64,000 nucleotides of DNA, from NCBI GenBank assembly GCA_963930775.1, contig OZ005704.1, positions 5,766,001-5,830,000 on the forward strand, written 5' to 3'. The position numbers were made by a program, and so were the translations under genes. Positions 1,002 through 57,958 of this stretch are shown here, piece by piece; the stretch's first letter is position 1, and the number at the start of each line of letters is the position of its first letter. Source of the stretch: Cliona cf. orientalis (taxonomy: Eukaryota > Porifera > Demospongiae > Clionaida > Clionaidae). The notes under the pieces were generated by a model, which was given only the letters and a program-made list of their open reading frames with translations, was not told the DNA's origin and made no database searches.

Positions 1002-2198
1002 ATGGCAGTATCAGAAGCGCCAGAGATGAGAATGTTTTTAAACCAAAACCAAGGAGAAGAGGTAAACTAATTGGCTACAAACTCTGATCATAATCTTTTA
1101 TACCTTTGCACATAGTAAAATTTAATATAGCTATGCTATTTTTTGTGTGCATTATACATAGCTGCATGCTTCTCCACTATAATGCAGGTGTACTATCCCG
1201 GTCAGTCAGTGAGTGGATCGCTTCAGCTGGTATTGAAAGAGCCCAAGTGGTATCAATATGCAGCTGTGTCGCTGACAGGGAAGGGAAAAGTTAGCTGGAC
1301 TGAAAGTCACACTGTAAGACGTGGAAACTACAGAGTGCAACAGACAGAACGCTACTCCGACAAGAAAACATACGCTGACATGTTTATTGTTATTTGGGGC
1401 GACAAAAATGCATCTCAACCTGTAAAAGTTGATTCTGGAACTTCAAATTTTTCATTTCAATTCACCATCCCAGCTCACTGTCCACCTACATTTAATAGTA
1501 TTATTGGAAAGATTGGATATCAGCTTTTTGGCATCATAGCAAGCCAAGTGAAGGAATACAAGGTTGAAACGCCACTCATTATTCGTCCTCTAGTTGATCT
1601 TAATTCACAACCACACCTCTTGCAGCCGTTTAATGAGACAAAAACAAAGAATATTATGAAATGCTGCTGCTGTTGTGATACTGGTGAGGCTGAGGTGACC
1701 TTTAAAATGCCACGAACTGGATTTTGCCTAAAACAGGATCAGATTCCGATTGTGATCGAATGCATGAATGGAAGCTCTGAAGAAATTTCGTTAGACGTTG
1801 AAGTCTCCCAAATAACTACCTATAAAGCGAATGGTCACACAAGGATCGAGGTAAACAATGCAAATATTTTCTTTTGTAACATACCAGCATCAACGTTGAC
1901 ATCAGATACGAAATCAGCTAATCCAGATATCCCTAAGTCTATCATCCTTGGCTTTAAAAGCAAAATGATCGAAATATCCCATTTTATTGTCCTGTCAGTG
2001 AGCCGTGCTTCTTTATGCTCTTGGCCTTCAGATATCATTGAAATACCTGTGGTGATAGGTAATGTGCCATTTCGTAATGATGAGGCTAACACAGCACAGC
2101 CTCCCACTGTAGTGGCTGGATCTGGAGATGAACCAACGAATGCTTCTGAATCACCACAAACTCCACTTTCCATCGATATCCTGCCACAGGCTGATTAA
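1002..2198 (+). CDS. Arrestin-domain-containing protein (alpha-arrestin-like), 2 exons
   Basis: Proposed exons are 1002-1061 (ATG at 1002, 20 codons, donor GTAAAC) and 1188-2198 (acceptor ATGCAG, stop TAA). The join is phase 0 and gives 356 aa. The splice restores the arrestin N-terminal strand: MRMFLNQNQGEE joins VYYPGQSVSGSLQL, the usual start of the N-domain in ARRDC-type proteins. The middle has KCCCCCDTGE followed by a VTFKMPRTGFC strand, matching the Cys-containing linker into the C-domain, and the C-domain ends with IPVVIGNVPF. In this family such proteins act as cytosolic adaptors that bring membrane cargo to ubiquitin ligases or endocytosis. The 40-residue tail has no PPxY motif, so NEDD4-type ligase binding is not evident. 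A broken paralogue lies tail to tail 360 bp downstream. The fold assignment is firm; the cargo is unknown. Confidence 0.85.
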
Positions 2199-2400
2199 TA
2201 CCCTTCCTCTCAAGAATCTTTGGGACAATAATATATTATTATTCTCATGATTACTGGTAATTGGATAATGCATGATATTGTAACTTAGTGATAGCTATTA
2301 CACATGCTAGCTATAGGTCAGCTATAGATAGCTAGCTAGCTAATTCATCTTAGAGTAGTTGTGTCTTTGTGTGACCCTGAGGGCGGCTTAGACTTGCCCC

Positions 2401-2406
2401 AATAAA
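2401..2406 (+). promoter_or_regulatory. Candidate poly(A) signal AATAAA
   Basis: A canonical AATAAA hexamer lies about 200 bases after the stop codon of the arrestin-domain gene, before the convergent paralogue. It is the best candidate 3' end signal for that gene. Confidence 0.45.
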
Positions 2407-2557
2407 CATTAATATAAATTTCATACAGTGTTCACTCTGATAATTAAAACAGTTTTATAGCTTAATATTCACCACACATCATAAACAAAAAAAATTGGTA
2501 TCAAAAACAGCTACGATAAACCTGCAAGTTACATACAGTGCTATAATTTATCAGTTG

Positions 2558-3742
2558 TTACGCTTGAAATGGGACATTCCCAACAAATACGGGCATAGAC
2601 ACAGACTCATCAACGCCCCATGGAATGTTAGCAGTAACATAGAGCGTATCTTCCGCCTTCAAGAGGTCGCATTCTTCCATCGTTGGCAAGGCATCAAATG
2701 GGATTACAAAATTGTCTGCTTCCCATGTGTACTCTGAATAGGGATCAATCTCTGGGCTTGCAGCAGAGGCAATAGTATCGTATTTCTCTTTTGTGAATTC
2801 TCCAACATGATAGGTCCATTTTCTCTGGATGCTAGCACTCATATAGATGCCTCTACGTGAACTGCTATTCTGGACATTGACGGTCATTGGAAAATTCTTT
2901 CCAATGCAGGCACCAGTGCGCGGAACATCAACACTGAACTGCATTTCCCCGGCAGTACAGCAACAACACCCAACCTGCATGTGACGTGACTGATGGGAGG
3001 GCTACATAAAGTTGGGACGATTGCTGTCAGTGACCTTTCGCACTTTCAAAGGAATAGTAACCTTCGGATCAATGGTTAGGAGTTCACCCGTGACAATCTT
3101 TGCACACAGGGAGTAGCTACTCAATCGATGAATTACCAAGCCATTCAAATCCAGGTTTTGGGTACGAACTTTGGCACTTTTTTGGAAGAGTAAACTGAAA
3201 TGGAAAACTATAATTTCCTGGTCCAATCTTTCTCTCTGGTGATAGCCTCTGGTCCCATAAATCTAATGTCTTATCCACATACGTTTCAGTAGCTCTGTGC
3301 TCTCTTCTTTCACTTGTTCCGGTCGCCGGATTACTGATTAACTCATAAATTTCCACCACAGCGTGGCCAAACAGCCTTAATTCAACAAACTTGTATCGTT
3401 TTGCTTCTGAGAGTGAGAACTCGACCTGTCCAAGGATTTCTTGCCCGGAATAATAGAACTGCATCATAATTGAAATAATTGCATAGTGATAATCATTATA
3501 GAATTCAAGGATAATTTATTATGTATGGTCAGCTACTGGTATAATATTATCATTCAATACTACCTATCAGTAGCTGAAGAAGGTCCAAGGACCGAAACGT
3601 TCTAATGCTTACTACGTCCATGCTCAATAAGACCCTTTAATTATTTAGTAACGTAGTAATGAGGCTCTACTCAATTAATTATTATCAATACTACCTGTTG
3701 TCCTTCATCTCTGTTTAGAGTAATTTTGAAGCCCTTTGCCAT
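2558..3742 (-). pseudogene. Arrestin-domain paralogue with a frameshift and an in-frame stop
   Basis: Read on the minus strand, exon 1 is 3742-3695 (ATG, 16 codons, donor GTAGTA) and exon 2 runs 3458-2558 (acceptor GATGCAG, stop TAA). Exon 1 encodes MAKGFKITLNRDEGQQ and exon 2 opens with FYYSGQEILGQVEF, the same exon structure as the arrestin gene on the plus strand. Two lesions break it. Near 3118-3121 four extra bases (TAGC or equivalent) shift the frame between WLGNSSIE and YSLCAKIV. At about 3002-3004 an in-frame TAG separates NRPNFM from the GCCCCTAGEMQF linker. Removing four bases makes the length a multiple of three. The C-domain to VFVGNVPFQA is open. It is either a recent pseudogene or a gene with two assembly errors; the pseudogene reading is favoured because there are two independent lesions of different kinds. 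Confidence 0.75.
3574..3618 (+). other. Hammerhead-ribozyme-like core motif (candidate)
   Basis: The order CTGAAGA, a short hairpin (AGGTCC AA GGACC), then GAAACGT and, 13 bases on, ACGTC fits the conserved hammerhead core: CUGANGA, stem II, GAAA, and a short stem III (ACGT with ACGT) ending before a UC cleavage site. Stem I pairing is poor, so activity is uncertain. It lies in the intron of the broken arrestin paralogue. Such motifs are known from Penelope-like retroelements, and this may be a relic of one. Confidence 0.35.
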
Positions 3743-3933
3743 CAGTCTATTCAGTGCTGAGCTAAGTCAATTCTTTCAAGGATATTCAACCATAGACTTT
3801 CTAAAGAATTGTTTATGCACAGGAGGCACTGGTAAGCTGAAGCTTACATTTTAATATAGTCTCGGAAGCCCGCATGCATGATGAACCAATTGCAACCAGG
3901 ACTTTCAAGGTCTAGCTCGGTCAGGGTTTAGGT

Positions 3934-4816
3934 TAGTCTCGCGGCGCCGCCCCTTCACAAGAGGAGGAAGGGTCTGGTACGGCGCCGTTACCCAAGTTGT
4001 TCTGCTGGAATGCAATTAACATCACGCGTGGTGACGATTTTTTACGCACCGCCACGCAGTGCGGCGAGGAGTTAACCGCACAGAATGTGCCGCAATTATT
4101 CAAGTTTACCACGTGGCATGCGGCGATTTTTTATGTACATGTATATAGCTACCATTTTTTGACACAGTGTGCCTCATCGATCACCAAAGCAACAAGTCTA
4201 CTAGCATAAGGTTGCTCTCGAAGCATGTGCCTCAGGACTGAACAACACCAGCTGATATGCACCCCCAGTGACAGAAGCTTTCTTATCCATGTCACTTTCA
4301 CAATCAATAAAGGCAGCTTTGATACCTTTGGTACTGTAAGACGCCACCTGGTCTTCCATCAGGGCTATGAGAGGAGAAATAACAACCACTATAGCTTTAC
4401 CACCACCAGACTCGACTGCTAACACGAGAGGAAGGAGCATGCGCATGTAGCACAAGCTCTTCCCAAAGCCAGTAGGCAAAGATACAAACACATCTCTCCC
4501 TTCTACGAAAGTACACAAATTGTTCACTTGTTCATCTTTCAGCTGGTCATAGCCTACTGACACACCGGCTTTCCTCACAGCTTCAGCGATATCCATGCCG
4601 ACGTTCCTAGGTAGCTTTGTGTGTGCACACGTATACACTATCGTGGTACCAGCGTGGTTGTGGTTACGATGGAGCAAATTGCATACCGCGGTGAAGCGGT
4701 AGCCACAACTTATGAATATTCATGTTCCCCAGGATTTCTGGGGAACAGAACAACTCGGGTAACGGCGCCGTACCAGACCCTTCCTCCTCTTGTGAAGGGG
4801 CGGCGCCGCGAGACTA
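3934..4816. mobile_element. 883-bp TIR DNA element carrying a RecQ fragment
   Basis: Terminal inverted repeats of about 71 bp (3934-4004 and 4746-4816) match with one difference. Both begin TAGTCTCGCGGCGCCGCC inward. The element is flanked by a perfect 9-bp direct repeat GGTTTAGGT (3925-3933 and 4817-4825), the expected target-site duplication. The interior holds a RecQ-type helicase fragment on the minus strand and no recognisable transposase. Nine-base duplications are typical of Mutator-like elements, but the superfamily is not proven. Two related elements with the same terminal TAGTCTC and 9-bp duplications lie at 48,344-49,627. Confidence 0.85.
4149..4677 (-). pseudogene. RecQ-family helicase fragment (motifs 0, I, Ia and II)
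   Basis: On the minus strand the first frame reads GYDQLKDEQ (motif 0-like), SLPTGFGKSLCY (Walker A, motif I) and VVISPLIALMEDQV (motif Ia), as in RecQ superfamily-2 helicases. After QLVLFSPEA a one-base shift moves to another frame that continues RLVALVIDEAHCVKKW, the DEAH box (motif II), and then stops. Motifs III to VI, the RQC and the HRDC domains are missing. The fragment lies wholly between the TIRs of the 883-bp element, so it is cargo or a decayed remnant of that element's own gene. The coding potential is clear; it cannot make a working helicase. Confidence 0.8.
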
Positions 4817-5078
4817 GGTTTAGGTCGTGGCCGGTCAATCGACGATAAGGAGTACGCTGTTGATCACGTATAATATAGCAATAATTATTATTGTAGTTGA
4901 CCTCGCACGTGAAACCCAGCACAATGATGATCGAATCATGAATGCGCTCAATAGCTGACCTTACTTTGAACAACAATGCGCATGCGCAAATTGTGCAGCA
5001 CGTGTTATCGACACGAGCATGGCATGCGCAAATGCTCTTCCTCTGCTCAGCCCGCAATCCGAACTGTAGCAGCATTTA

Positions 5079-5473
5079 TTACCCCGCGCGCATGCGCAAG
5101 GGGTAATGTGATCGGTTTTGTCTGTCGTCTGTCGTCTGTCTGTCTGTCTGTCTGTCTGTCGTCTGTCGTTAGCACAAAAATCGCCAGATCTGGAGATCTA
5201 GGCATCTGAGCGACTCATAAATGCAACGTATCCGTAAATATCGCCGAAAAATTGGCTTCAGTATGCTTCGAATCGTTTGGCAAGGCCCACGAGCGTTGCA
5301 AATACTGCGTTTTGTTGGCCACGCCTATATGTACACTACCCACCATGTGCTCTCTGCTCATGCGCACAACCCGACACAATGTGTCGGTAAAGGTCGTCAA
5401 CAGGCTGCTAGCTCTCTGACCACAGATATATGCTCTGACATCAATGCTGCAGCGCGCGTATAGAGCTCTAGTT
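5079..5473. repeat. Dispersed repeat family D, copy 1
   Basis: Starts TTACCCCGCGCGCATGCGC and ends near GCGCGCGTATAGAGCTCTAG. The same ends and interior words (AGCACAAAAATCGCCAGATC; CTTCGAAT; GGTAAAGGTCGTCAA) recur at 14,697 and 22,077. Inner ends form a short inverted repeat (TACCCCGCGCGC). It contains a (CTGT)n microsatellite at about 5121-5165. No protein is encoded; it is probably a non-autonomous DNA element. Confidence 0.7.
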
Positions 5474-5626
5474 TACGTAATAGATATGCATAAATCTCAC
5501 TCCGGAAGCCATAATGTCATGAAAACCGCTCATACAATATCATTTCCATGAAAGGAAACATTGGTGAATCAATGGCTTCCCAATCAAGGAGAGACGGCAT
5601 ATATGTAGCTACAGTGTCAAATTATT

Positions 5627-8600
5627 ATGAAGCCAATTCCAGCTGTAAGTCTGCCTTTTCTCTACACACTACTTCTTGGAACTTGGAGCCAACGAAGCTA
5701 TGCAGTCAGAATCTATCCCTTCAAAATGGATCCCAAGGAACATCCGGACTATGAGAGGTATGCCGTGCCACACCCTTCCTTTGACGTATTTGACCCTCTA
5801 CCTCAGTTTGCCACACTCAGGGACATTAGCACTGCAGATCAGCACCTAGATAAGTACACTGAGCTCATTGAGAATTTTTGCCTCAACCTAAACACCACTC
5901 TGGGTCATGTGATATGGCCAAGGGGTCCAGGTTTCATGTTTGCAGATAACTATAAAGATTTCATCGATTTTATTCAAGAAAAGGGACTGTACGTTACCAG
6001 TGTGCATGGTTTCTCTCCAGTGGTGGCAGGATTTCACCCTCCAAAGGAGGTGCTGGACTATCTTGAAGAGAAGCTGGGGGCCAAGTGGTTTGGAATGGCC
6101 AATGGGGAACAAGATGGTCACTATTTCGGCGGATTTGCTCGTGAGGAATTGCCACTAAACAAGCGACCACTGGATCAATATCTTAACTTCAGAGAGTATT
6201 TTCATGGCATGGAGACGATCCTTGGACCTAAGGTGACAACTCTGCTAAGCAGTACCTACCCCCACCATCAGCTGAAGACTGGACTATACACATTAGCTGG
6301 AGCTGAAACTTCTCAACATGGACCCAATGCTCAGCTGAGGTATGCTTTTATCCGTGGAGCTGGAAAACAGTATGGAGTGATATGGTTTGGAAATGTGTCC
6401 GTTTATAATAGATTTGGACATAAGAAATATACGACTCCCACAGGAACAGTAACATCTAGTGAAAGTACAGATAAGCAAAGCTTAAGACACAACAAAACCG
6501 AACCAAAAAGACAAAAGGGCACACGATTGGCAAAGATAGTATCAGAAGTAAGCCTTCAGTGTGTTCAAAATGTGACTATGCCAGGTTATGGGACAGATAA
6601 GCTAGGAGATCCCTTTGGACCAACTTGTGGCACATCTCTTAATCTTATGAAAAGATTAATGTATGCTCAGATGCTCTACAACAGTGGCTATGTTAGCTTT
6701 GAAGACGACTGGTTCTACGAAGATCAAAACAATACTCTTTCGCCGATTGGCCTAATTCAACACCATGGCTTTCTATGGACTCAAGGAATGCCTCTCCTGG
6801 CTGAAGGTGTCCATGTTCCAACCATTGCCTTCTACCTCGACTTTCTAAGTGGCTGGACAGCTCCGAGATTGAAACGAGCCATCTTTCGCACATGGAATAA
6901 CCTCCCCTACACAGCTGGTGACTATCTTATTGATGGCCTCTTTAGAGAGGTCTACCCACACTATCAAGATGCCTCGTTCTTCCACGATGAGACTGGTGTA
7001 AGTTCACCCACTCCCTATGGTGACTTAGTTGATGTTCTACTCAGTGATGCTCCAAGCTGGATTCTGAAGCAGTACGATACTGTCGTTATTGCTGGTGAGA
7101 TTAGTGGAGGGCTAGAAGTGGAGATGAATCTGATAGAGTACGTAGAAAGTGGTGGACACTTGGTCATCACTGTAGGAAATCTGGTTAAATTCCATGAAGG
7201 CGCTTTCAATGTGACTTCGAATATGAACTGCCACCCCATACCAGCAGGCAGTGAGATTGCATTTATTGAAGAAGCCAATTTTGTTGAAAGCTATAATATG
7301 ACTATCTGTGATTTGAATGTTCAGTTACCAACATCTGATTACTCTCTCATAGCAAAGCTACTAAATAATGATCCACTCATTGTCCGCATTCCTTTTCAAG
7401 GCAATGACAATGGTGGCACAGTGACCATCTTTGCTACACCTTTTGCCATCTCTTCATACCAGGTAGCCACGCCTACCAGCGAGGTGGACATTACTCTCCC
7501 CTCTCCCTACCCACTACTGGATCATTCAAGAAAGATGTTCAACTACATTCTTGGCAATGCATCCATCTTCTACAGTGAGTCCAACTTGACGCTAGTGCAC
7601 ATGTTACTCAATAGCAGTATAGATGAGTTCCTCGTACTCATATCAAATCCAGAGCTGAAAGAGCAGCCACTGAAATGGGGTTCCTATAGTAGGGATATGG
7701 AAATAGTTCAAGAAATACAGCTGGATCAATCAGAAAAGGGAGCTGTAGGGTATCTACCAGATGGCTATGAGGATACCGACATCGGCAAAAGTACCAATAC
7801 AGCTATAGCAGGTGGAGACACAAGACTCTTTAGAGTGCGAGTGAAATGGACAGAAGGACCATCGGATTTCAAGTACATACCTAAAATCAATCCAAAGCCA
7901 AGACCAAAAGGAATTGGTCTCCATCTCAGACATCTGGAACACTCCATTAGGTACGAGATCCTAAAACGACCAACCTTCTTTCAGCACTATGACTCGATAG
8001 TCGTGGACTACAATTATCTCATTTCTAAAGACAATGCTTTTCTAGTGGATGATGGGCAGTGGTTGTCTCAACAGAGTGTCACAGTCTATGTGGATGCCAG
8101 TCCCTCAATAAATCTATTTCCAACGTTGCGATTTCTAACAGATGATCCCGCTACCTACAACAAGACAGTGTCCTTCCTGGCAAGCTTAATGCATAAAATG
8201 AACACTTTAGGATCACATGATCTCATCATTTCATTACATAACTTTCCAGGGGATGAATCTACAGACCAGTCTCGTAGGGACTTCAATGCAACCATCCACT
8301 ACCTCAATAATCTTGGTACTCAACTCAACATTACGCTACACATGCTTGATACTCCAAAAAATCCCTATTCACTAATGCCCCTGACTAGATGGTTGGATGA
8401 AAATAATCTCTCCACGATAAAAATTGTTCTGAATTTAGCACTTTTAGTTAACTATGGCAACAGCTACAAGTATGACAGTGTCATCCAATCACAGTCTAGC
8501 CTTCTCTATGTTACAGCTCCCGGTTGGGACTCATATGGAACAAGTTACGGCAACAATGTACCCATCATTAATGTCAACGATTCAACCCAAGAGGCGGTTG

Positions 8601-21766: not shown

Positions 21767-21822
21767 TAGCCTCGTCCCCAGGCCCCTCCCCCCGCGTTGG
21801 GAGGGGCCTGGGGACGAGGCTA
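21767..21822. repeat. Perfect 24-bp inverted repeat (hairpin)
   Basis: TAGCCTCGTCCCCAGGCCCC at the left is mirrored by GGGGCCTGGGGACGAGGCTA at the right, with 24-bp arms and an 8-base loop (CCCGCGTT). The arm resembles the ends of the TAGTCTCG TIR elements, suggesting an element reduced to its two ends. It directly follows the 430-bp array. Confidence 0.8.
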
Positions 21823-26204: not shown

Positions 26205-26609
26205 TGTGGCAGTCACTGAACTTGAACTTGTAGCTGCTATATTAGTATTAATACTCTCAGGCTTGATAAAGTAGCACTATAGCATTATAGAAATAATTAT
26301 CTTTATGTACTCTATAATAATTTGTTTTGGGTGAAGAATACCATGCACACATGCACGCACTATTTTTTTGCCTTCTTCAGCAATCAAATCTACGTTAAAG
26401 CTTTATGTGTACAAATGTAGTTGGTCCCAACACCACATTGTTTGTCACATCCTAACAGGAGCTATCAAAATTAGGCTAAAAAAGGGCAATTATTATTGTG
26501 CACTGAAAAAACACAATTAACACAAGCCAATTTGCAGATACATTGACAGATATCTTTCAGTAATATTCAACTTTACTTTAGATTGCATAATATTCCGCTA
26601 GCTACCATC

Positions 26610-29605
26610 ATGCTCATTCACAGCATCATCCTGAGTGTGCTAATCAGCTTACCATCTGGAGAATCTTGTGCAGTTAGAAATTTATACTACTATGTCATAC
26701 CAGATTCACAACCGAATGTTACCAGAAATGCTATGTTACATTATCATAAAGATGAAGTATCGTATAAAACTCTGAAGGAATACCAGGAGATGGGGAACTT
26801 CAGTGAATGTGACTACCAAGGCAATCAACATATTGCCACTATCATTGAAAAATTCTTGGCGAGAGTGCATGAAGCAAAGTCAGACAAACCTCTACGCTTC
26901 GTCAATGTGGAGGGGATAACATTTGTTGGCTCTGGCCATTCTGATCAAGTTATTATTAAGAATCTTGGCCTTAGAATCATTACAGGTACAGTGGTCATAC
27001 GGAATATCACAATGGAGGGAAGTTATAGATCATCCTCATCTAAAAATATTTATCAACTGCTAACAATAGTGAACTGCAAATTTTTTGCTTCTCAAATGCA
27101 ACAGTAGAGCTCACTATTGAAAGTAGCGAATTTCATAATAGCTCATCTACTGCCATAACTTTATACTCAAGTTTTGCAATATTCTGTGGTACAGTGATCT
27201 TTGAAAATAACAGTGGATTGAAGGGAGGAGCTATAGCTTTGATTGGCTCAACATTGACTATTAAAAGCAAATCCTTAATTAGTGGTCTTCAGGAATAATC
27301 ATGCAAATGAAACTGGAGGAGCCATATACACAGATAATGTTGAGCCCCGGATTAATTTGGAAGGATATAGATCGTACTGCTTTTATATGCTGGATGTGCC
27401 ATTTAATCATACAGAAAGCAATGCTCTAGATAACTTTACACAGGTTTTGAGGTTTGAGAGTAATACAGCTTCTTTGGGAGGTGATCATATCTATGGAGCC
27501 AAACTGAAAAGTGACTGTGTATCCTCAAGCTATTGTCATGACGATAACTGTTGATATAGCTAGTTATGAAACAATTGGAAATGTGTTCAAAATTTGATCT
27601 AGACTACACTATCAGTACTTCATGGTCAGCCGTATCTGGAGATCCTACACGTCTATGCATATGTGACAACAATGGTCTACCGCAATGTGCCAATGCTTCG
27701 ATGATCTATCTCGAAATTAATGTTTATCCTGGACAACCTTTTAACATCTCAGCGGTATTAGTTGGCGGGGACTTTGGCACAACAACTGGTACTGTATATG
27801 CACACATAAAGGACTCCAAATTAGGAAGGTTGATGTCTAATGAGTATATATGCACAGCTCGTGCTGGAAAATACCAAGTGCACTGATCTGAAATACTCAA
27901 TACAATCAAATCGTTCATCGAAAGTGCTCTACCTTACAGCCAAAAAAACAACTTCGGATACTCTTGGTAACAAAATTCTGCAGGATCCAGTCCAGTTGGA
28001 TGAGCACATCAGGAACTACACTGAGATGGGAATCATTGACCAAAAGTTACTTCATGTACCAATTATGATAAATGTGACCCTACTCCCATGTCCACCTGGG
28101 CTCACACTACAGCAGAAACCACCACACTGTAACTGTAGCTCCATACTGACTGCCAATAATATTCAGTGCTTCTCCAATGATGAAGGTAGTAACTTGAGAT
28201 GGGACGGACTCCTCTGGATAGGGTATACAAGGGTGAAACTGACATTATGATTTCCAGATGCCCCATAGACAATTGTGAGATGGATGAAAAGGACATTAAC
28301 CTTCAGAAAAATCCAGATGCTCAGTGTGCCTACAATCATGCAGGAGTGTTGTGTGGTAGGTGCCAAAAAGGGTACAGCCTGGCTATTGGTTCCTCTCACT
28401 GCATTCATTGCCCCAATAACAACAATTTGGCACTTCTCATTTTCTTTGCAGCTGCTGGGTTCTTTCTGGTGATTGCCATCTCTGTATCTAATCTCACAGT
28501 CACGCAAGGTATGATTAACGGACTGATGTTTTATGGCATCCACAGAAAAAAGAAACAGGGAATTGTCACTAGCAGTAATAGCACATGCTTGTGGTGGCTG
28601 TAGGTCAAATTGCCATCGAGTGCCCATACCCTAATACTTTGTCCATGGGGGTGCGTTTTCAGATCAGCCAGTCGAAGTGAAGCAATGATCGTGCGAAGAA
28701 GTTTAGCATAGGACAGAAACAGTAGCGTTGCTAGAGTTGGAACTGATCTGTCACCAAAAATTTTGGAAAGCTTCGAGGAGTAGTGGACACCAAGTAGAAA
28801 TATTGCGGCTATGTAAAATGGAAAGATGAACTGCAACCACATTTTGCCATACATATCCAGGCCATTGTAGAAGCAGGTCTCAATCCCAAAGTCAAGATTT
28901 AACCAAGCAAGAAATGTCTTAAGAAAGACTGATATTCCAGTTGGATTGTGAGGGAAGAAAGCATTTTGGTAGGTCCACACAATATTGGCATACACAGTTA
29001 TCCTTTTCTCAATGCAGTGGCTGAGAAAGGTTGATCACTACAAACCTTTGAAGCCACTAGCACAGTACAAGCCAATATATGATGCATATTTTGGGCCTCT
29101 AAAAGACAAGCATCATTACTGGTTTGGGACACTTCTTTTAGCACAAGGAATACTTCTTGTTGTGTCATCCCTCACTCTAAATCTAGTCCCTATTTTCAGT
29201 TTGCTTCTGTTGCTGATTATTGTTACCCTTTTGCTCTGCTATCTTAATCACGTCAAGATATATAAAAAGCTTTATCTTACACTCATAGAAAGTTCATTTT
29301 TGCTGAACCTTATCATGCTCACTGCTGGAAGTCTATACTTCAGAGAGAGTGAGAGTGGACAAACGACCATACTTTGTGTGTCAGTTTCTATTGTCTTCAT
29401 TGAATTCTGTGGAATCGTAGTTTGGAACTTGATCCCACTAAAAAATATTAACTATTTCAAGAGAAAATCTGATTGCATAAATGACAATAATCAAGAGTTG
29501 GATACTGTTCAGATTCTTGAATACAGTGACTACATTGACCGCAGTAGAGAGGAACAATACGTGTGCTTTCATGACTCTATAACTGCGGATGACATTACAG
29601 ATTAG
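26610..29605 (+). pseudogene. Large beta-helix/multipass membrane protein, cassette A, heavily disrupted
   Basis: Homologous throughout to the cassette B gene. It starts MLIHSIILSVLISLPSGESC (signal peptide) and ends with the same tail and TAG. Lesions against copy B: loss of about 8 bases near 27,096 after FASQM; a 4-base gain near 27,277; a stop (TGA for CGA) at 27,552 followed by a 4-base gain (CTAG type); one extra base near 27,588; a 4-base gain near 27,845; a 2-base gain near 28,225; and inversion of about 457 bp at 28,535-28,991 removing TM2-TM4 from the sense strand. Reading pieces remain on both sides (27,282-27,554; 27,566-27,886; 28,985-29,605). It cannot encode the full protein. 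Confidence 0.9.
28535..28991 (-). other. Internal inverted segment of the cassette A gene
   Basis: The minus strand is open and reads NIVWTYQNAFFPHNPTGISV through LLLLVTIPCFFFLWMP, the part found on the plus strand in cassettes B and C. The flanks (GMINGLMFY before, YTVILFSMQWL after) are on the plus strand in normal order. Both junctions show TATG/CATA microhomology, so the piece flipped in place. Confidence 0.9.
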
Positions 29606-30210
29606 TTACTCGGAATCACATAGCTATAATGATGATAGCTATAGAGACTATAGGGTCAGTACTAGCATGATGGTCTAGCTGCCATCTGTCAGAAATCATT
29701 GATATCTAATGGATATATGGTTTCTATTATGCATCCACACTGTTCAGTTGAGGTAATAATCTTTCTAGTGTGTCAGTTTTATGTCATTAATTCAACCACC
29801 TTGGTGCACACTTGATTAGTTTATGTATAACTATTATGTATCCTGTAATGCATAAAGTATTATAGAGAGAAAAAATATATTATATATATATAAATGACTT
29901 CTCTTGTCATTCACCAAAAGTTACCGATTATGGAAAATGTGACCCTATACTTCCCCCTAAGCCCCCCCCCCCCCCCCCCCCTTTTTGAGCAGTACTAATA
30001 TGTGATTGATGAATTTTACTATAATGATAGTTAGATAGCCAAAAATGTGCAAGAAATTTGAGATATTATAATAGCTGGAAATAGCTGATTTAATGCATTT
30101 TTAAGGTTCTGGACACAATTTTAGGACATAATTTTTCGCACGCTTCACAAGCAGTTGTCACAAAGCCGCCCCCCCCCTCCCCCACTTTGAAAACCATGTC
30201 TACGCCCTTC
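29606..30210. repeat. 3' flank of cassette A with poly-C tracts
   Basis: Collinear with 36,716-37,170 and 60,431-60,890. Contains C tracts (29,962-29,981 and 30,170-30,184). Homology to cassette tails stops at about 30,210 within CTACGCCCTT, the junction with cassette B. Confidence 0.7.
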
Positions 30211-32309
30211 ATTGTTCACAGTACCACAGCCTATATTATGTTACAAGGTTAAGTTTGTGCATTATCTAGAGCTGTGATCCCATTAATTTTCAACCACAAC
30301 TGCACCAGCTGACAATGGCCCCAGGGCCAGAAGCTGCACTGTATTATATATGTACGGTACAATTTTGTATCCATGCAAGATTGTCAGACACAGTAGCTAC
30401 TGTATTATGCGTACATTTTGGATTTAATTTAGTGTAACTTTAAAGTTTAGTTTCAAGCAAGTCTTATACTCCCAGATTCTATTTACATAGATATAATTAT
30501 ACATACCTGTATACAACCCGAGAAGCGTATGCATATGATGAATGATTATGCCAGTAAATTGACTGCTAGCACATACTAGGTAGGAAACATGGGACCCCCT
30601 ATTTTTTTGAATATCACACTAAGTATAGTCTTAATCCCTTGCCTATATAGAGCCCTCCTTGATCAAACCATCTTTCTATACATCTATGTAGTATCTGCAC
30701 GCATACTGTATACGTAACACAATAATTATAATCTATAAATTAAACCCATGCATGCAGCTACCACTAGCTCCATTAGCAGTACAAGTGGAGCTCACATGTG
30801 GATGCAATCAAGCCTCACTGGAATAAAAAAAAACACTTTCATCTGTTGATTAGCTATCTGAAAAGATATCAGTCCTGCCAGTTTATAAATTCTATGTACC
30901 AGAACATGACAAAATACACCATTAGCTACCATAATTATTATAGATGAGGACATGCAAAGCAACTACGATCAACAAGGGACTTCTGTCAGTACCAACTGTT
31001 GTCAATTATTATTGCAAAAAACATTGAAATTAAAGTGACATCTGTTGATAATTAGTACCAAATTCGAGCTCATGCAGAGTCTCTTAGTGAGTTAATAGCT
31101 GTTGGTATACTCATGCTACTCTCTATAGATAGTGAATAAAAGTAACAGAACATCACATGTCATGTAAAATCATATTAATTTAATATAGTTAAATGAAACA
31201 GATGTAGACTGACATCCATGTTGAAGTTCATATAATATTATTATACTGTGTCTAAGAATAAGCATCAAAAGATTCATATGTAATGGACAGATGCTATAAT
31301 TATACATGCATGTGTTTGCAATAATTGCATGCATACAGCTCAGGCAGCACAGTATCATAGTGTCATATTGATTATTATTGTTAATTATCAAGGATACAAA
31401 ATTAATACCAGGTCCTGTATATGCATGAGAATGAATCAGATTATTTTAGTGTGAGTATGCATAATTATGATAAAGTTTGTATAATATTATATGTTAATAT
31501 ATCAAAAATAATCTGATTCATTCCAATACAGGATCGATCTGATTGTTTATTCAAGTTGTAGCTATATTATATCAAGGCCCGTCATGTACGTATTAATATG
31601 TGTTATTATAAGTGCCAGCTTACTCAAGCCGGCATGCCATATGTACTTTCAGTGTTAATAATAACAATAATTATGCATGCCTTAATTCTCCCAAATCAGA
31701 ATAAGTAATCATCGTTATGATAATTATATTATTATAATAGCTAATACTGAAAGCTATAGTGCAATAAACGCTCCTTTGTAAGAATGTCCCCTGGTACCTC
31801 ATAATGTATCAAGTTACTGATCCAAAAGAAAAGGCTTTATTTTGAATGATGGGTTTCAATGCAAAAGGTGGTGCAAATCATCAAGATACAAAAGTGACTA
31901 GCTTGCTGCAGTTTTGAATTTTCTTTTTGCAGTTAGTAGTTTAATTTTGAGCTTTCTCTTTTCATAATAATTATTATTATTAAATTTTAGTCATGCATGT
32001 TCTTTCTGTATTAGCTATGACTTGCATCGGGATGGTTGAAATTAATTTAAATGTGGGAGTATGAAAAACATTGTGTGCATGCATGTGCAGGCTTAATATT
32101 ATGACATTGTATACTGTACACATGCATGCACGGAAACGTTTACAGGCCCGGCTGGGGGCTAAAGCTTTCCTATATAAAGCAAGAGGGAATACAACAAGAA
32201 AAACAGTTTTTCAGTATCAGATTCTGAAGACTTGCTAAAATTTAATAATTCGGTGTGCTTATCGTTATTATTGATTTAAGAGCTGGTGATCAATTGCTGC
32301 TTCAAGATT
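30211..32309. repeat. Upstream region of cassette B, with relics of the minus-strand tetraspan gene
   Basis: From 30,211 the sequence resumes with a condensed copy of the 17.3-24.8 kb region: TTCACAGTACCACAGCC (as 17,328), the piece ACTGCACCAGCTGACAATGG CCCCAGGGCCAGAAG from exon 2 of the minus tetraspan gene (17,866-17,913), then 19,206-19,450, 21,825-22,070 and 22,830-24,847 equivalents. The 430-bp array and repeat D copy 3 are missing. No intact gene. Confidence 0.75.
31409..31541. repeat. Foldback repeat upstream of cassette B
   Basis: Same inverted arms as at 23,315 (CAGGTCCTGTAT ... ATACAGGATC; GAATCAGATTATTT / AAATAATCTGATTC) around an AT-rich centre. Confidence 0.7.
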
Positions 32310-33256
32310 ATGGACGCACAGAAAATATCTATACAGAAAAATCCCCTCAAATTGGTTGCCATTATACTAAGGATTATTGTCATTGTAAGTTGTTAAAGTT
32401 ATGTACAAGTCTTGCATGCACTGTCACTCGAAAGACCACTCATGCAATCAATCTATAGACTTCTTGGATAGTATTTGCATGCTTAATGATGACATGCATT
32501 TGCATTGTATATGTAAAGTATCATAGATTTCCAAAATTGATATTGCATTATAATTATGTGACCATTCATCATAATTGCATTTGCGTTGCATGCAGGTATT
32601 TGCAGGGGTAACTGCTCTGTGTGGAATTATTGCCCTTAGCAAGGTGAATATTGACCAAGTTCGTGCAGAAATAGAGGTTATTAAAGTTTATCCAGAACAA
32701 GGGAAATATGCTATCTATACCAGTACACTGGTGTGTGGCTCGCTACTTCTGCTCGCTTGTGGAGGTACACTACTCTACGAAATAATAATTCTTATCAAAT
32801 CCATAGTGTCAAAAGATCAGAATACCAAGGTGCTATCAATTGTGGTGAGCCAGTTATTAATCCAAGCTTGTGCACTCATTCATGAAGTTAATTTTATCAT
32901 GCTCTGCAGGAAACTGTGCTTGGTTCAATTAGTGCAGTGGTGTTCTTCGGCCTTTCCATTGGCCTGGTTAACTTTGCTAATGAGATTGCTAAGCTTGGTG
33001 TACAGCACCCTCTCATCATGTCTGATCAAGTAACTGCTGTAAGTTACAATAATAATGGAATATTTTTGCATGCAAATTCCTTGCCGCGGAGAAATTTATT
33101 TTGGTATCATAAGTAGCAATTTAATTAAGTTTGATTAATATGATGTTTGTTTTTATTCAATTCTAGGCTTTTGGATTTCTTACCACATTTGCCATAGCTG
33201 GGCTGATAGTTTTCTTGTGGATAAAATTCTATATTGAGAAATCTCGAGCTGCTTGA
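32310..33256 (+). CDS. Small four-exon tetraspan protein, cassette B (180 aa)
   Basis: Exons 32310-32384, 32596-32844, 32910-33038 and 33167-33256; phase-0 introns, 543 bases with TGA. Compared with the cassette A copy it lacks 8 residues in exon 1 (MDAQKISIQKNP) and 8 in exon 3, both multiples of three, so the frame is kept. The loop differs most: VNIDQVRAEIEVIKVYPEQG replaces the A sequence. TM2 segment LVCGSLLLLACGGTLLYEII and C-terminal EKSRAA are kept. No stop, frameshift or splice-site loss is seen, unlike its large neighbour 470 bp downstream. Confidence 0.85.
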
Positions 33257-33728
33257 TGCCTATACTATGGCAGTCACTGAATTTGAACTTGTAGCTGCTA
33301 TACTAGTACTAGAACTATCAGGCTTGATAAAGTAACACTCGCATTGTAGAGTTGTGTGCAATGTTTAGTTTGAGAGTATAACCTTATTATAGTTAATCGC
33401 TGTATACCTACTGTGATACATAAAATATCAATTTGAAGATAATTATGTATATGTGTGTGCCATGCACACACATACTATTTTAAATTTTGCTGTCTTTAGC
33501 AATAATTGTGAATCAAACCTGTGTTTATGTATAGTTAGTCCCAACACCACACAGTTTATCACATGCTAACAGAAGCTATCAAAATTGGGCAATTATTATT
33601 GCACTGAGCATAACACCTCTCAAGTTAGTAATTTGCAGAGACAATGATGACTCATAATTATAATAATTATCTTTCAGTAATATTCACCTTTACTTTAGAT
33701 TGTATGGTATTCTGCTATAGCTGCCACC
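33257..33728. other. Spacer between the paired genes of cassette B
   Basis: Non-coding. Collinear with the spacers at 26,205-26,609 and 57,532-57,958. The GCCACCATG start context of the large gene lies at its right end. Confidence 0.6.
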
Positions 33729-36715
33729 ATGCTCATTCTCAGCATCATCCTGAGTGTGCTAATCAGCTTACCATCTGGAGAATCTTGTGCAAGAAATTTA
33801 TCATACTTCGTCATGCCAAGTTCACAACTGAACAGAAATGCTACATTAGATTATAACGATGAAGTATATTGTACAAAACATTGAAGGAATACCAGATATT
33901 GGGAAACTTTAGTGAGTGTGACTACAAAAGTAATGGACATGTCACAAATATCACTGTAATATTTTTGACGGGAGTTCATGAAGCAAGGTCAGAAAAACCT
34001 CTACGCTTCGTCAATGTGGAGGGGATAACGTTTGTTGGCTATGGCCATTCTGACCAAGTTATTATTAAGAATCTTGACCTTAGAATCATTACGGGTACAG
34101 TGGTCATACGAAATATCACAATGGAAGGAAGTTACATAATAATGTATAGATCATCCTCATCTAATATTTATCGACCGCTAACAATAGTGAATTGCAAAGT
34201 TTTGGCTTCTCAAATGATTCTTCCAACAGTAGAGCTCACTGTTGAAAGCAGTGAATTTTATAATAGTTCATCTACTGCCATAACTTTATACTCAAGTTTT
34301 GCAATATTCTGTGGTACAGTGATCTTTGAAAATAACAGTGGATTGAAGGGAGGAGCTATAGCTTTGATTGGCTCAACATTAACTATTAAAAGAAAATCCT
34401 TAGTGGTCTTCAGGAATAATCATGCAAATGAAATCGGAGGAGCCATATATAATGTTGAACCCCAGATTAATTTGGAAGGATACAGATCGTACTGCTTTTA
34501 TATGCTGGATGTGCCATTTAATAATGAAAGCAATGCTCTAGATAACTTTACACAGGTTTTGAGCTTTGAGAGTAATACAGCTTCTTTGGGAGGTGATCAT
34601 ATCTATGGAGCCAAACTGAAAAGTGACTGTGTATCCTCAAGCTATTGTCATGGCAATAACTGTCGACTTAGTTATGAAACAGTTGGAGATGTATTCAAAT
34701 TTGATCTAGATTACACGATTGGTACTTCATGGTCAGCCATATCTGGAGATCCTACACGTCTATGCATATGTGACAACAATGGTCTACCGCAGTGTGCCAA
34801 TGCTTCGATGATCTATCTCAAAATTAATGTTTATCCTGGACAACCTTTTAATATCTTAGCGGTATTAGTTGGCGGGGACTTTGGCACAACAACTGGTACT
34901 GTATATGCACACATAAAGGACTCCAAATTAGGAAGGTTGAATCAGATGTCCAATGGTTATGCACAGCTCGTGCTGGAAAATACCAAGTGCACAAATCTAA
35001 AATACTCAATACAATCAAATCGTTCATCGGAAGTGCTCTACCTTACAGCCGAAAAAACAACTTCAGATACTCTTGGTAACAAAATTCTGCAGGATCCAGT
35101 CCAGTTGGATGACCACATCAGGAACTACACTGAAAGGGGAATCATTGACCAAAAGTTACTTCATGTACCAATTATGATAAATGTGACCATACTCCCATGT
35201 CCACCTGGGCTCACACTACAGCAGGAACACTGTAAGTGTAGCTCCATACTGACTGCCAATAATATTCAATGCTTCTCCAACGCTGAGGGTAGTAACTTGA
35301 GATGGGATGGACTCCTCTGGATAGGCTACAAGGGCGAAACTGACATCGTGATTTCCAGATGTCCCATAGACAATTGTGAGATGGACGAAAAGGACATTAA
35401 CCTTCAGAAAAATCCCGATGCTCAGTGTGCCTACAACCATGCAGGAGTGTTGTGTGGTAGGTGCCAAAAAGGGTACAGCCTGGCTATTGGCTCCTCTCAC
35501 TGCATTCATTGCCCCAATAACAACAATTTGGCACTTCTCATTTTCTTTGTAGCTGCTGGGTTCCTTCTGGTGATTGCCATCTCTGTATCTAATCTCACGG
35601 TCACGCAAGGTATGATTAACGGATTGATGTTTTATGCCAATATTGTGTGGAGCTACCAAAATGCTTTCTTCCCTCACAATCCAACTGGAATATCAGCCTT
35701 TCTTAAAACATTTCTTGCTTGGTTAAATCTTGACTTTGGGATTGAGACCTGCTTCTACAATGGCCTGGATATGTATGGCAAAATGTGGTTGCAGTTCATC
35801 TTTCCATTTTACATAGCAGCTATATTCTTACTTGGTGTCCACTACTCCTCGAAGCTTTCCAAAATTTTAGGTGACAGATCAGTTCCAACTCTAGCAACGC
35901 TACTGTTTCTGTCCTATGCTAAGCTTCTTCGTACGATCATTGCTTCACTTCAATTGGCTGATCTGAAAATTTATCCCCATGGACAAACTATTAGGGTATG
36001 GGCACTCGATGGCAATTTGATCTACAGCCACCACAAGCATGTACTATTACTGCTAGTGACAATCCCCTGTTTCCTTTTTCTGTGGATGCCATATACAGTC
36101 ATCCTTTTCTCAATGCAGTGGCTGAGAAAGATTGATCACTACAAACCCTTGCAGCCACTGGCACAATACAAGCCAATATACGATGCATATTTTGGGCCTC
36201 TAAAGGACAAGCATCACTATTGGTTTGGAGCACTGCTCCTAGCACAAGGAATACTTCTTGTTGTGTCATCCCTCACTCTAAATCTAGTCCCTATTTTCAG
36301 TTTGCTTCTGTTGCTGATTATTGCTACCCTTTTGCTCTGCTACCTCAATCACATCAAGATATATAAAAAGCTTTATCTTACACTCATTGAAAGTTCATTT
36401 TTGCTGAACCTTATCATGCTCACTGCTGGAAATCTATACTTCAGAGAGAGTGAGAGTGGACAAACGACCATACTTTGTGTGTCAGTTTCTATTGTCTTCA
36501 TTGAATTCTGCGGAATTGTAGTTTGGAACTTGATCCCACTAAAAAAAATTAATATTAACTATTTCAAGAGGAAACCTGATTGCATAAATAACACTAATCA
36601 AGAATTGGATACTGTTCAGCGGATTCTTGAACACAGTGACTACAATGACCACAATAGAGAGGAACAATACGTGTGCTTTCATGACTCTATAACTGCAGAT
36701 GACATTACAGATTAG
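33729..36715 (+). pseudogene. Large beta-helix/multipass membrane protein, cassette B (about 994 codons, one frameshift)
   Basis: The start at 33,729 has a strong context (GCCACCATG) and gives a signal peptide (MLILSIILSVLISLPSGESC). Near 33,861-33,868 two extra bases relative to copies A and C put the first 45 codons out of frame with a 948-codon ORF that follows; otherwise this is the best copy. Residues of about 100-300 are a beta-helix-like region (short hydrophobic strands, GGAIALIGS and GGAIYNVEP, like repeats of polymorphic outer-membrane-type proteins). A Cys-rich part follows (CAYNHAGVLCGRCQKGYS, then SSHCIHC), then about eight hydrophobic spans from LALLIFFVAAGFLLVIAISV to VSIVFIEFCGIVVWNLIPL and a tail of about 60 residues. 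It looks like a surface receptor or adhesion protein. If the frameshift is an assembly error, this is a working gene. Confidence 0.8.
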
Positions 36716-43935: not shown

Positions 43936-44258
43936 AGGGGCTTCCTCGCTCAGCTCAGGGAGGCAGTGCGCACGCGCAATGGCAACCATGAGGAACTCCC
44001 TACTGTTCAGTGCCACGATGCGAGGGGAGTACATGTACAGTTCACGAAAACTGGCAGAGCGTTGGTGGTGTTAAGTTTTCAGAGAATAGAAATCTATGTT
44101 TGACGTGTATCAGGAGCACAAAGAAGCAGCAAGAGGCTATCGGGAAGATGGGCGAAGATATCATAGTAAAGCCGACGCGAACTTTTGAACAAGATAGGTA
44201 AAATCCGGCAAATCTGCTGGCTTGTAGCCGCTGTGTGTTCTTGTGAAGATAGAAATCC

Positions 44259-47863: not shown

Positions 47864-48343
47864 GGGGCGAGCCTGAGCGAGCCCCACATAAACGGTACAG
47901 CTATGCGCGAATTGTATATAATTTATGGTACGTCGGTCACGCGAAATATATGCCCTGCATGGCTCTATGGACATAAGCGCGAAATATTCTATTGCGCATT
48001 CTCATGCCATAGCCCATGGGCCGTATGTACGCTGTTCTAATTTAGCGAATTGCAGATTTACACTCGTGCATGCAGCAAGCATAAAAATGACTTGCCACGA
48101 ACGCTAGCGGACCCTGGCTGAGCCAATGTAAACCAGAGACAAATAAGACTGCGGAGAATAGAGAGGACTATCAGATAGGTACGTCGCATCTATGACTGTC
48201 GTGCTTGGATTCATTGTCCATAGTCTTCCGTGACGATCCATGGCTTTTACTAGCCTAGGCTACTTGAATAGTCTCTACTCCAGTCCGCCATAGATCTATG
48301 TCCAGTCCGACAGAGCCTTTCTTAGCTCAGGCTCGCCCCAAAC
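47864..48343. repeat. Dispersed repeat family C, copy 2, interrupted by TIR elements
   Basis: Starts GGGGCGAGCCTGAGCGAGCC and follows copy 1 (13,587) to GCTCGCCCCAAAC. After the two inserted elements its right end resumes at 49,628 (GCCCCAAACAGGCCATGCAT). Confidence 0.75.
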
Positions 48344-48500
48344 TAGTCTCGTGCCCAGACCCCACCCCCAAAAAGAGGGAAAGGGTCTGGCGCACTTCGA
48401 GCCATTTCTTGTATTTGCTGACTCGACAGTTCAGGATCCTGGCAGATTACAGGCATGTGATTTTATCATGTGACTTGTAGACTAACGTACGTACACGTAT

Positions 48501-48801
48501 ACCGTATCCTCCCGAAAATAAGCCCCCTTCGAAAATAAGCCCCCTCCCCTCTTTGACCGTCAAGTTCTTGCACAGGTATGTTTGCCTCGATTATAAGTCC
48601 TTTCCCCATCGCCGATCGTCGTCTGTTGCCGTCTACTTGACAGGTCATCTCGCTGCCGCTCTTAGCTACAACAGCTAGTAAACCACTGGCCAAGGGGGGC
48701 TTATATTCGAGGGAAAGTGCATATTCGAAAATAAGCCCCCTCCCCAGTCTAGGTCATGTCTATTGCAAAAAAAGGGGGGGCTTACTTTCGGGAGGATACG
48801 G
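48501..48801. mobile_element. Mariner-like MITE nested in element A
   Basis: Ends ACCGTATCCTCCCGAAAATA and TTTCGGGAGGATACGGT are inverted, with TA on each side. GAAAATAAGCCCCC recurs inside. It resembles the MITE at 25,695 in layout but not in sequence. Confidence 0.8.
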
Positions 48802-48925
48802 TATAATAATAATTATTAATAATAATAATAATAATTTTAATACCAAATAACATGATAGGCGTGTGCACGAAGATACTAGTAGATACTAGTAACTAGAGCA
48901 CTTGCGTGTAGCGTGGCTAGCGGAG

Positions 48926-49183
48926 ATGAACCAGGTGCAGGACGTCGCGACTGTATTTGTTCCTCGTTGTCGTTTGAAGCTTACTGTGACCCTTGTTTCA
49001 GTTCAGCAAGCTATTACCCAGAGCGTTAAAGAACTTGGATACGATCAACCGACTGATGATCAAGCAGAGGTTCTTCAGAAGTTTGTAAGTGGTCGCAATG
49101 TATTCATATCTCTGCCCACCGAGAGTGGCAAAAGTCAGACTCTGTGCGTTTCTTTAGTATTCGACAATTTCCCACCTGTTTAG
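48926..49183 (+). pseudogene. RecQ-family helicase N-terminal fragment
   Basis: From the first ATG (MNQVQDVATVFV) the frame reaches ELGYDQPTDDQAEVLQKF (motif 0-like) and GRNVFISLPTESGKS (Walker A; the usual LPTGSGKS has E for G), then stops. Motifs Ia onward are missing. It matches the fragment at 4149-4677 (GYDQ..DDQ/DEQ, F(V)EGRDVFVSLPT versus FVSGRNVFISLPT) and lies within TIR element A. Confidence 0.7.
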
Positions 49184-49306
49184 CGGCTTTTTTTAATTGG
49201 AATTCCGCTTTGCGCACGTGATCGACATTCCAAAATCACCTGATCTGCAGAGTCAGCAAATACAAGAAATTGCGCCAGAACCCTGGGCACGAGACTAGCC
49301 CCAAAC

Positions 49307-49627
49307 TAGTCTCGTCCCCAGACCCCACCCCCAAAAGGAGGAAAGGGTCTGGCACACATCGAGCGCTTTTTGGGTCTTGCTGACTTGGCATATCTGAATT
49401 CTATCGCACCAATCAGATTCACGCCATGTGGCTTGCATGTGATTATCGTATGATACCGCGCGCTAGCCGCCTATTGCTGCACGTGAGAGCCGCTGATGTG
49501 TTGCCATGCCTATAGGATGCGTTGTCATGACGATCACATGACATGCTGCATCCTGTGCGCCAAAAAAGCGCTCGATGTGTGCCAGACCCTTTCCTCCTTT
49601 TGGGGGTGGGGTCTGGGGATGAGACTA
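49307..49627. mobile_element. 321-bp TIR element B, non-coding
   Basis: Arms of about 67 bp, TAGTCTCGTCCCCAGACCCC ... AAAGCGCTCGATGTGTGCCA, differ at only two or three places. Flanked by GCCCCAAAC at 49,298-49,306 (shared with element A) and 49,628-49,636. A deletion derivative of the same family. Confidence 0.85.
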
Positions 49628-49636
49628 GCCCCAAAC

Positions 49637-57531: not shown

Positions 57532-57958
57532 TGCCTAGCTGCTATAATATTATTAGTACTAGTACTGTCAGGCTTGATAAAGTAGCACTGGCATTTTAGA
57601 GTTATCATCAAATCGATATCTTTACTGATGTACCATAGTAGCTATACAGTAACTATAAGATTATACTCTCAAATTAAATATTGTACGTAATAAATTTGCT
57701 TAGGGTGAAGAATGCCATGCACACACACACTGTTTTTCACATTATGACTCAAACCTGTGTTTACGTATAGTTAGTCCCAACAGCACACAGTTTGTGACAT
57801 GCTAACAGGAGCTATCAAAACTGGGCAATTACTGTTGCACTGAGCAAAACACCTAGCTCGCAAGCTAATTTGCAGGGACGTTGATGCTTCATGCGTATAT
57901 CTTTCAGTAATATTCACCTTTGATTTAGATTGTATGGTATTCTGCTATAGCTGCCACC
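57532..57958. other. Spacer between the paired genes of cassette C
   Basis: Non-coding; collinear with the spacers of A and B. Ends with GCCACC before the ATG at 57,959. Confidence 0.6.

What the first reader, a model, noticed from the sequence alone, without database searches (positions are those of the whole stretch)
3925..4825. TIR element with a RecQ helicase fragment and 9-bp target duplication
An 883-bp element has 71-bp inverted ends, a perfect 9-bp duplication (GGTTTAGGT) and, inside, RecQ motifs 0 to II. With the element at 48,344 it suggests that a DNA transposon family routinely carries a RecQ-type gene, as its own helicase or as captured cargo. No superfamily known to me with 9-bp duplications is defined by RecQ.
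Basis: partly seen in the sequence, partly recalled or inferred. Interest (0 to 1): 0.8.

Follow-up and report, generated by a model that had tools for sequence, protein, structure and literature searches.

The report
Deleted copy of helicase-carrying DNA transposon
The 883-base element is a shrunken, non-working copy of a mobile DNA element whose longer relatives carry two genes, a probable transposase and a RecQ-type DNA helicase, and this layout with nine-base target duplications matches an already described group called AcademH.

Summary
In detail: 883 bp (3934-4816), 71-bp inverted ends (99%), perfect 9-bp duplication, and a 5' RecQ fragment on the minus strand, frameshifted before motif II. 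The genome has at least six more near-full copies and a 5,897-bp relative with the same ends and its own perfect 9-bp duplication; the short form lacks about its middle 5 kb. The long form carries a RecQ gene and, tail to tail with it, a gene of Pfam family DUF6589. Two other elements (5,464 and 6,324 bp) share TAGTCTCG ends, 9-bp duplications and the gene pair. Of 102 DUF6589 places found, 72 have RecQ within 5 kb, all 72 convergent (random 0.9). RecQ and DUF6589 divergence correlate (r 0.80, 15 loci) and both look similarly constrained. So RecQ is most likely the transposon's own gene, not captured cargo. Not a new superfamily: published passages give AcademH 9- or 10-bp duplications and a helicase, and name RecQ in Academ. 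Open: whether DUF6589 is the Academ DDD/E transposase; motif acids and predicted strand order fit, but fold and sequence searches found nothing. Verdict: new member of a known kind.

The parts
3925..3933 (.). left target-site duplication GGTTTAGGT
3934..4816 (-). non-autonomous 883-bp element (internal-deletion derivative; helicase-side end is on the right)
3934..4004 (+). left terminal inverted repeat, 71 bp, DUF6589-side end of the long form
4746..4816 (-). right terminal inverted repeat, 71 bp, helicase-side end of the long form
4201..4719 (-). ORF with the 5' fragment of a RecQ helicase gene (motifs 0, I, Ia, Ib in frame; motif II follows in another frame)
4817..4825 (.). right target-site duplication GGTTTAGGT
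48335..48343 (.). target-site duplication GCCCCAAAC, copy 1
48344..49297 (+). second non-autonomous element with TAGTCTCG termini, 954 bp including a nested MITE
48902..49180 (+). ORF with a 5' RecQ fragment (motifs 0 and I), reading inward from the left end
49298..49306 (.). target-site duplication GCCCCAAAC, copy 2 (between the two elements)
49307..49627 (.). 321-bp MITE with related ends; 29 further copies at 95-96% listed in the genome
   Evidence: rows counted by hand
49628..49636 (.). target-site duplication GCCCCAAAC, copy 3

Best explanation
The 883-bp element is a MITE-like internal-deletion derivative of an AcademH-type DNA transposon. Long members (5.5-6.3 kb) have TAGTCTCG terminal inverted repeats, sit in 9-bp target duplications, and carry two convergent genes: a multi-exon DUF6589 gene, most likely the DDD/E transposase, and a RecQ-family helicase. 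Inferred mechanism: the DUF6589 protein binds the inverted ends, cuts, and joins them to staggered target cuts 9 bp apart; the element's own RecQ helicase unwinds ends, strand-transfer intermediates or gap-repair intermediates. The short copies keep the ends, so they can be moved by proteins made by intact relatives. Shown here: ends, TSDs, gene pair, convergence, correlated divergence, constraint, amplification of the short form. Inferred: catalysis by DUF6589, the step at which RecQ acts, mobilisation in trans.
For: Own-genome search gives the window copy and six further near-full copies at 90-98% (L006 reaches only position 782), 97.7-99.5% over ungapped columns of a multiple alignment; 6 of the 7 have perfect 9-bp TSDs. 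L009 holds a 5,897-bp element with the same 71-bp ends and TSD TCCTCAGTC; the 883-bp form equals its two ends, 712 bp at 88% and 203 bp at 96%. Its ORFs match DEAD, Helicase_C, RecQ_Zn_bind (3.3e-6) and DUF6589 (4.2e-39, 1.1e-11) and RecQ-family models; best solved structures WRN 3.7e-24, RecQ 4.1e-23. Two further full elements with TAGTCTCG ends, perfect 9-bp TSDs and the gene pair: 5,464 bp, GGTAAAGGG and 6,324 bp, GGGCCAGGC. 72 of 102 DUF6589 places have RecQ within 5 kb, 72 of 72 convergent, random mean 0.86, maximum 4. RecQ and DUF6589 identities correlate, r 0.80, 0 of 10,000 permutations as high, 15 loci; 10 of 15 have the same nearest locus by both genes. Five diverged pairs: pS 0.76-1.01, pN 0.17-0.35 in RecQ and 0.15-0.37 in DUF6589. 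Eleven element RecQs separate from seven other RecQ ORFs of this genome with 100/100 support. Literature passages: AcademH, 9 or 10 bp TSDs, helicase; RecQ in Academ.
Against: The primary AcademH paper is not held, so the link from DUF6589 to the Academ transposase was not tested by sequence. Foldseek on two models gave no match at E<=0.001 and the DUF6589 profile found no PDB sequence at E<=1. 30 of 102 DUF6589 places had no RecQ by my query; 11 of the 13 of these that I held show a convergent exon with GRAGR-like and Cys motifs, 2 do not, and Pfam support for these exons is weak: of 7 scanned, 4 reach RecQ_Zn_bind at E<=0.1, all under its cut-off, and 3 match nothing. 22 of 85 RecQ places scoring 100 bits or more had no DUF6589 partner in my list (only 102 of 338 DUF6589 candidates were scored). 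Five of 15 loci differ in nearest relative between the two genes.
Confidence: 0.85

Rival explanations
1. The RecQ piece is captured host cargo in an ordinary MITE, picked up once or several times.
For: In the window the RecQ piece is a broken fragment, as captured exons often are; 22 of 85 strong RecQ places lack a listed DUF6589 neighbour.
Against: Full-length elements keep a long RecQ gene opposite DUF6589; 72 of 72 pairs are convergent; RecQ and DUF6589 identities correlate, RecQ is constrained like DUF6589, and element RecQs form one group apart from seven other RecQ ORFs.
Confidence: 0.04
2. It is a Kolobok (KolobokH-like) transposon, a group also reported to carry RecQ.
For: PMC9587614 passages: KolobokH encodes RecQ downstream of the transposase (fungi only), and Kolobok-1_CCri of a rhodophyte carries RecQ on the complementary strand, as here.
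Against: TSDs here are 9 bp and varied, not TTAA (recalled as the Kolobok TSD). No Pfam transposase model other than DUF6589 matched the ten L009 ORFs scanned.
Confidence: 0.03
3. It is a separate superfamily: DUF6589 is not the Academ transposase, so these are RecQ transposons with a different transposase that also make 9-bp duplications.
For: Homology of DUF6589 to Academ transposases could not be tested (paper not held); no held paper names DUF6589.
Against: 9-bp TSD plus helicase is what is published for AcademH and RecQ for Academ.
Confidence: 0.08

Closest known systems
AcademH (lineage of the Academ superfamily; Kojima 2020, seen here only through passages and reference lists of later papers)
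   Same: Helicase-encoding DNA transposon with 9-bp TSDs; RecQ named as the helicase in Academ.
   Different: No difference shown. TIR sequence, gene order and transposase could not be compared because the paper is not held.
AcademX (other Academ lineage)
   Same: Same superfamily according to Kojima (passage).
   Different: Nuclease and 3 or 4 bp TSDs; here helicase and 9 bp.
KolobokH and Kolobok-1_CCri
   Same: DNA transposons with RecQ; in the rhodophyte element on the complementary strand (passage).
   Different: Kolobok TSD is TTAA (recalled); KolobokH reported only from fungi.
MITEs derived by internal deletion
   Same: Short, multi-copy, both ends kept, no complete gene.
   Different: Keeps a recognisable 5' helicase exon, which is less usual in MITEs (recalled).

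Membership tests
AcademH | 9 or 10 bp target-site duplication | tested here: met
   Perfect 9-bp TSDs: window copy, five of six further near-full short copies, and three full-length elements
AcademH | encodes a helicase (RecQ per PMC3627910) | tested here: met
   DEAD, Helicase_C, RecQ_Zn_bind and RecQ-family models; PDB WRN/RecQ
AcademH | terminal inverted repeats (recalled) | tested here: met
   71-bp TIRs in the window copy and L009; 122 bp with 12 mismatches in the 6,324-bp element; short, imperfect, gapped ends in the 5,464-bp one
AcademH | DDD/E transposase homologous to Academ transposases | tested here: inconclusive
   DUF6589 rows share acids in GDN, GDQ and EHxN, but the rows were picked by those motifs; predicted strand order fits an RNase H fold at low confidence; no PDB fold or sequence match; no Academ reference sequence at hand
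Kolobok | TTAA target-site duplication (recalled) | tested here: not met
   9-bp varied TSDs
MuDR/MULE (8-10 bp TSD, recalled) | MULE transposase domain | tested here: not met
   No MULE Pfam model at E<=1 in the ten L009 ORFs scanned, of 34 listed for L009 and flanks
Helitron | no TSD, no TIR, Rep plus PIF1-type helicase (recalled) | tested here: not met
   TIRs and TSDs present; helicase is RecQ type

The most novel reading that the evidence does not exclude
DUF6589 is a DDD/E transposase distinct from the published Academ transposase, and DUF6589 plus RecQ elements form their own superfamily with an obligate, co-evolving helicase that shapes the 9-bp transposition reaction.
Probability: 0.08. 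Interest if true: 0.6.

Novelty: new member of a known kind. Interest (0 to 1): 0.3.

Why it matters
It makes it very likely that RecQ pieces of this kind in this genome are remnants of a transposon's own helicase, and it gives a large, divergent set (at least 102 DUF6589 places, 72 with RecQ, in one genome) in which helicase and probable transposase have stayed paired. It also suggests a function for Pfam's DUF6589. No paper in the held library names DUF6589, so the link may be useful for annotation.

Tried and rejected
Captured cargo, Kolobok, MULE and Helitron readings were weighed and set aside (rivals, membership table). I looked for a genome-wide signature of end-to-end tandems separated by one TSD: CGAGACTA-N0-30-TAGTCTCG gave 33 sites against 4 for the control, but only 2 of 33 had a 9-bp spacer (counted by hand), so shared-TSD tandems are not a rule. 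In L004 the apparent triple TSD includes repeated flank (GATCGA before it), so it looks like a local duplication. The first structure model and both Foldseek searches gave no usable match; the second model (mean pLDDT 63.8) is used only for its order of strands and helices, which is weak evidence because the stretches around GDN, GDQ and EHxN have pLDDT under 50. One search was a wrongly guessed DOI; that paper was not used. A RecQ family scan of the genome scored only 26 of 528 candidates and did not decide the unpaired DUF6589 places.

Limits of the counts. Searches of the genome score only part of their candidates: 40 of 95, 102 of 338, 136 of 282, 40 of 971. One search set unknown contig lengths to 8 Mb for the random control and used 200 placements. 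One search uses single exons of 15 loci, some of them partial for RecQ, with no correction for relatedness. One search used seven pairs; two are near-identical and uninformative, the DUF6589 exon of L041 was not entered, and only codons in windows of at least 30% identity were kept, which lowers pN in both genes. One search used 11 element RecQs (partial and duplicate ones left out) and 7 of the 9 other RecQ loci fetched (L065 and L071 left out: near-duplicate and short). Best-explanation confidence was lowered from 0.88 to 0.85 on rechecking, only so that the odds of the readings add up to one.

Full report
Observation. The 883-bp element at 3934-4816 is real: 71-bp terminal inverted repeats, 99% complementary, flanked by a perfect GGTTTAGGT duplication. 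The terminal octamer TAGTCTCG is six times in the window against 0.81 expected. On the minus strand an ORF of 172 aa (4201-4719) matches DEAD (2.1e-11) and RecQ family models (7.5e-19). Reading all frames shows motif II in a different frame, so the copy cannot make even the first helicase domain intact.

Copies and the long form. A DNA search found the window copy and six more near-full copies (L002-L007; 90-98%, 97.7-99.5% over ungapped columns among the seven). Six of these seven have perfect 9-bp TSDs (for L002 around a 1,141-bp unit with an adjoining partial copy); L006 reaches only position 782 of the query. The same search showed one place where the two parts of the query lie about 5 kb apart; L009 shows a 5,897-bp element, 1007-6903, with the same ends and TSD TCCTCAGTC. 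The 883-bp element is its helicase-side 712 bp (88% identical) plus its DUF6589-side 203 bp (96%). L009 is thus a close relative of the source, not shown to be the source itself. The short form is best read as one internal deletion that then multiplied, since the near-full copies match straight across the junction.

Coding content. In L009 the left part reads rightward: 231-aa and 285-aa ORFs matching DEAD, Helicase_C and RecQ_Zn_bind, RecQ family models, and solved WRN (3.7e-24) and RecQ (4.1e-23) structures. The right part reads leftward as several ORFs; two match DUF6589 (4.2e-39, 1.1e-11). The two genes run toward each other. Of the ten L009 ORFs scanned, none matched another transposase model at E<=1.

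Other families with the same plan. At C7:1967073-1972536 a 5,464-bp element has TAGTCTCG ends, TSD GGTAAAGGG, DUF6589 and RecQ. At C1:7234603-7240926 a 6,324-bp element has long inverted ends (first 50 bases identical, 122 bp with 12 mismatches), TSD GGGCCAGGC and the same gene pair. In L009, in the 6,324-bp element and in both window fragments the helicase reading starts a few hundred bases from one end (positions by arithmetic; for the element at 48344 after leaving out the nested MITE) and reads inward; in the C7 element the orientation is the same, its start was not located.

Genome-wide pairing. A DUF6589 search returned 122 pieces (102 of 338 candidates scored), and a search with the L009 RecQ exon 138 pieces (136 of 282 scored); counts are lower bounds. 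Merged into places, 72 of 102 DUF6589 places have a RecQ piece within 5 kb; all 72 are convergent; median gap 357 bp; random placement gives 0.86 on average, 4 at most in 200 runs. Of 85 RecQ places of 100 bits or more, 63 are paired; of 15 between 66 and 100 bits, 9; of 20 below 66 bits, none. Of the 30 unpaired DUF6589 places I held 13; 11 of these show, by motif and by eye, a convergent exon with a GRAGR-like motif and Cys pairs, L043 and L056 do not. Pfam support for these exons is weak (of 7 scanned 4 at E<=0.1, all below cut-off), so they are a probable but unproven second helicase lineage. The other 17 were not examined.

Own helicase or cargo. Across 15 loci with both exons in hand, pairwise identities of RecQ and of DUF6589 correlate (r 0.80; 0 of 10,000 permutations as high); 10 of 15 loci have the same nearest locus by both genes, 5 do not. 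For five diverged pairs silent differences are saturated (pS 0.76-1.01) while pN is 0.17-0.35 in RecQ and 0.15-0.37 in DUF6589 (only codons in windows of at least 30% identity kept). A tree of 11 element RecQs and 7 other RecQ ORFs of the same genome splits them with 100/100 support; whether those others are host genes or other repeats was not determined. RecQ therefore looks like a long-standing, selected part of the transposon.

Transposase. DUF6589 rows share acids in GDN (10 of 10 rows), GDQ or GDL (14 of 14) and EHxN (16 of 16) in the alignment, but most rows had been picked with those motifs, so this overstates conservation. A second AlphaFold2 model (36-row alignment, mean pLDDT 63.8) places GDN just after a first strand, GDQ after a later strand and EHxN in a helix after a long all-helical stretch, the order expected of a DDD/E RNase H-like core with a helical insertion (recalled). 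The stretches around the three motifs have pLDDT under 50, and Foldseek and a PDB sequence search found no relatives. Transposase function is therefore inferred from linkage, motifs and topology, not shown.

Second element. At 48344-49297 lies a 954-bp element with TSD GCCCCAAAC, containing a RecQ 5' piece (48902-49180; 23 of 49 residues identical to the first; Pfam DEAD 0.0032, below cut-off) and a nested MITE (48498-48805). Eleven further places match its two parts without the stretch that holds the nested MITE (rows counted by hand). A 321-bp MITE (49307-49627) follows, and the three GCCCCAAAC copies flank and separate the two; 29 further copies of the MITE are listed at 95-96% (counted by hand; 40 of 971 candidates scored).

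Comparison with the literature. The primary AcademH paper (10.1186/s13100-020-00211-1) is not held; I saw its title in reference lists. A passage of a later paper by the same author states that AcademH generates 9 or 10 bp TSDs, AcademX 3 or 4, and links this to helicase and nuclease (PMC10045372). A passage of PMC3627910 lists the RecQ helicase in Academ, citing Kapitonov et al.. Passages of PMC10799480 list DEAD and Helicase_C among the domains of AcademH, KolobokH or Helitron and place AcademH in fungi. Passages of PMC9587614 report RecQ in KolobokH and Kolobok-1_CCri. The combination seen here fits AcademH in both published traits that I could test; the transposase link remains to be tested.

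Verdict. New member of a known kind; interest 0.3.

Noticed in passing
48335-49636: Three perfect copies of GCCCCAAAC flank and separate a 954-bp element and a 321-bp MITE, as if the second inserted exactly into the TSD of the first. Genome-wide this spacing is not enriched (2 of 33 end-to-end sites).
   Followed up: partly
48498-48805: MITE with 30-bp inverted ends (CCGTATCCTCCCGAAAATAAGCC type) nested in the 954-bp element; part of it also matches the flank of the element in L009.
   Followed up: no
21767-21822: 56-bp hairpin with 24-bp perfect arms and TAGCCTCG ends resembling the TIRs of this group, with no evident TSD.
   Followed up: partly
44253-46277: ORF of 675 aa with a reverse transcriptase domain (RVT_1, 2.1e-39), LINE-like.
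   Followed up: no
26547-36715 and 57929-60430: Related large membrane-type ORFs in at least three places, split in some; one matches a Chlam_PMP repeat model weakly.
   Followed up: no
L064-L072: A second set of RecQ ORFs in the genome, some long open frames in near-identical copies (C4, C6, C10: 1,329 aa), with no listed DUF6589 within 5 kb; host genes or another repeat family, not determined.
   Followed up: partly
L002 1501-2641: Full short element directly abutted by a partial second copy (element positions 646-883) inside one outer TSD.
   Followed up: no
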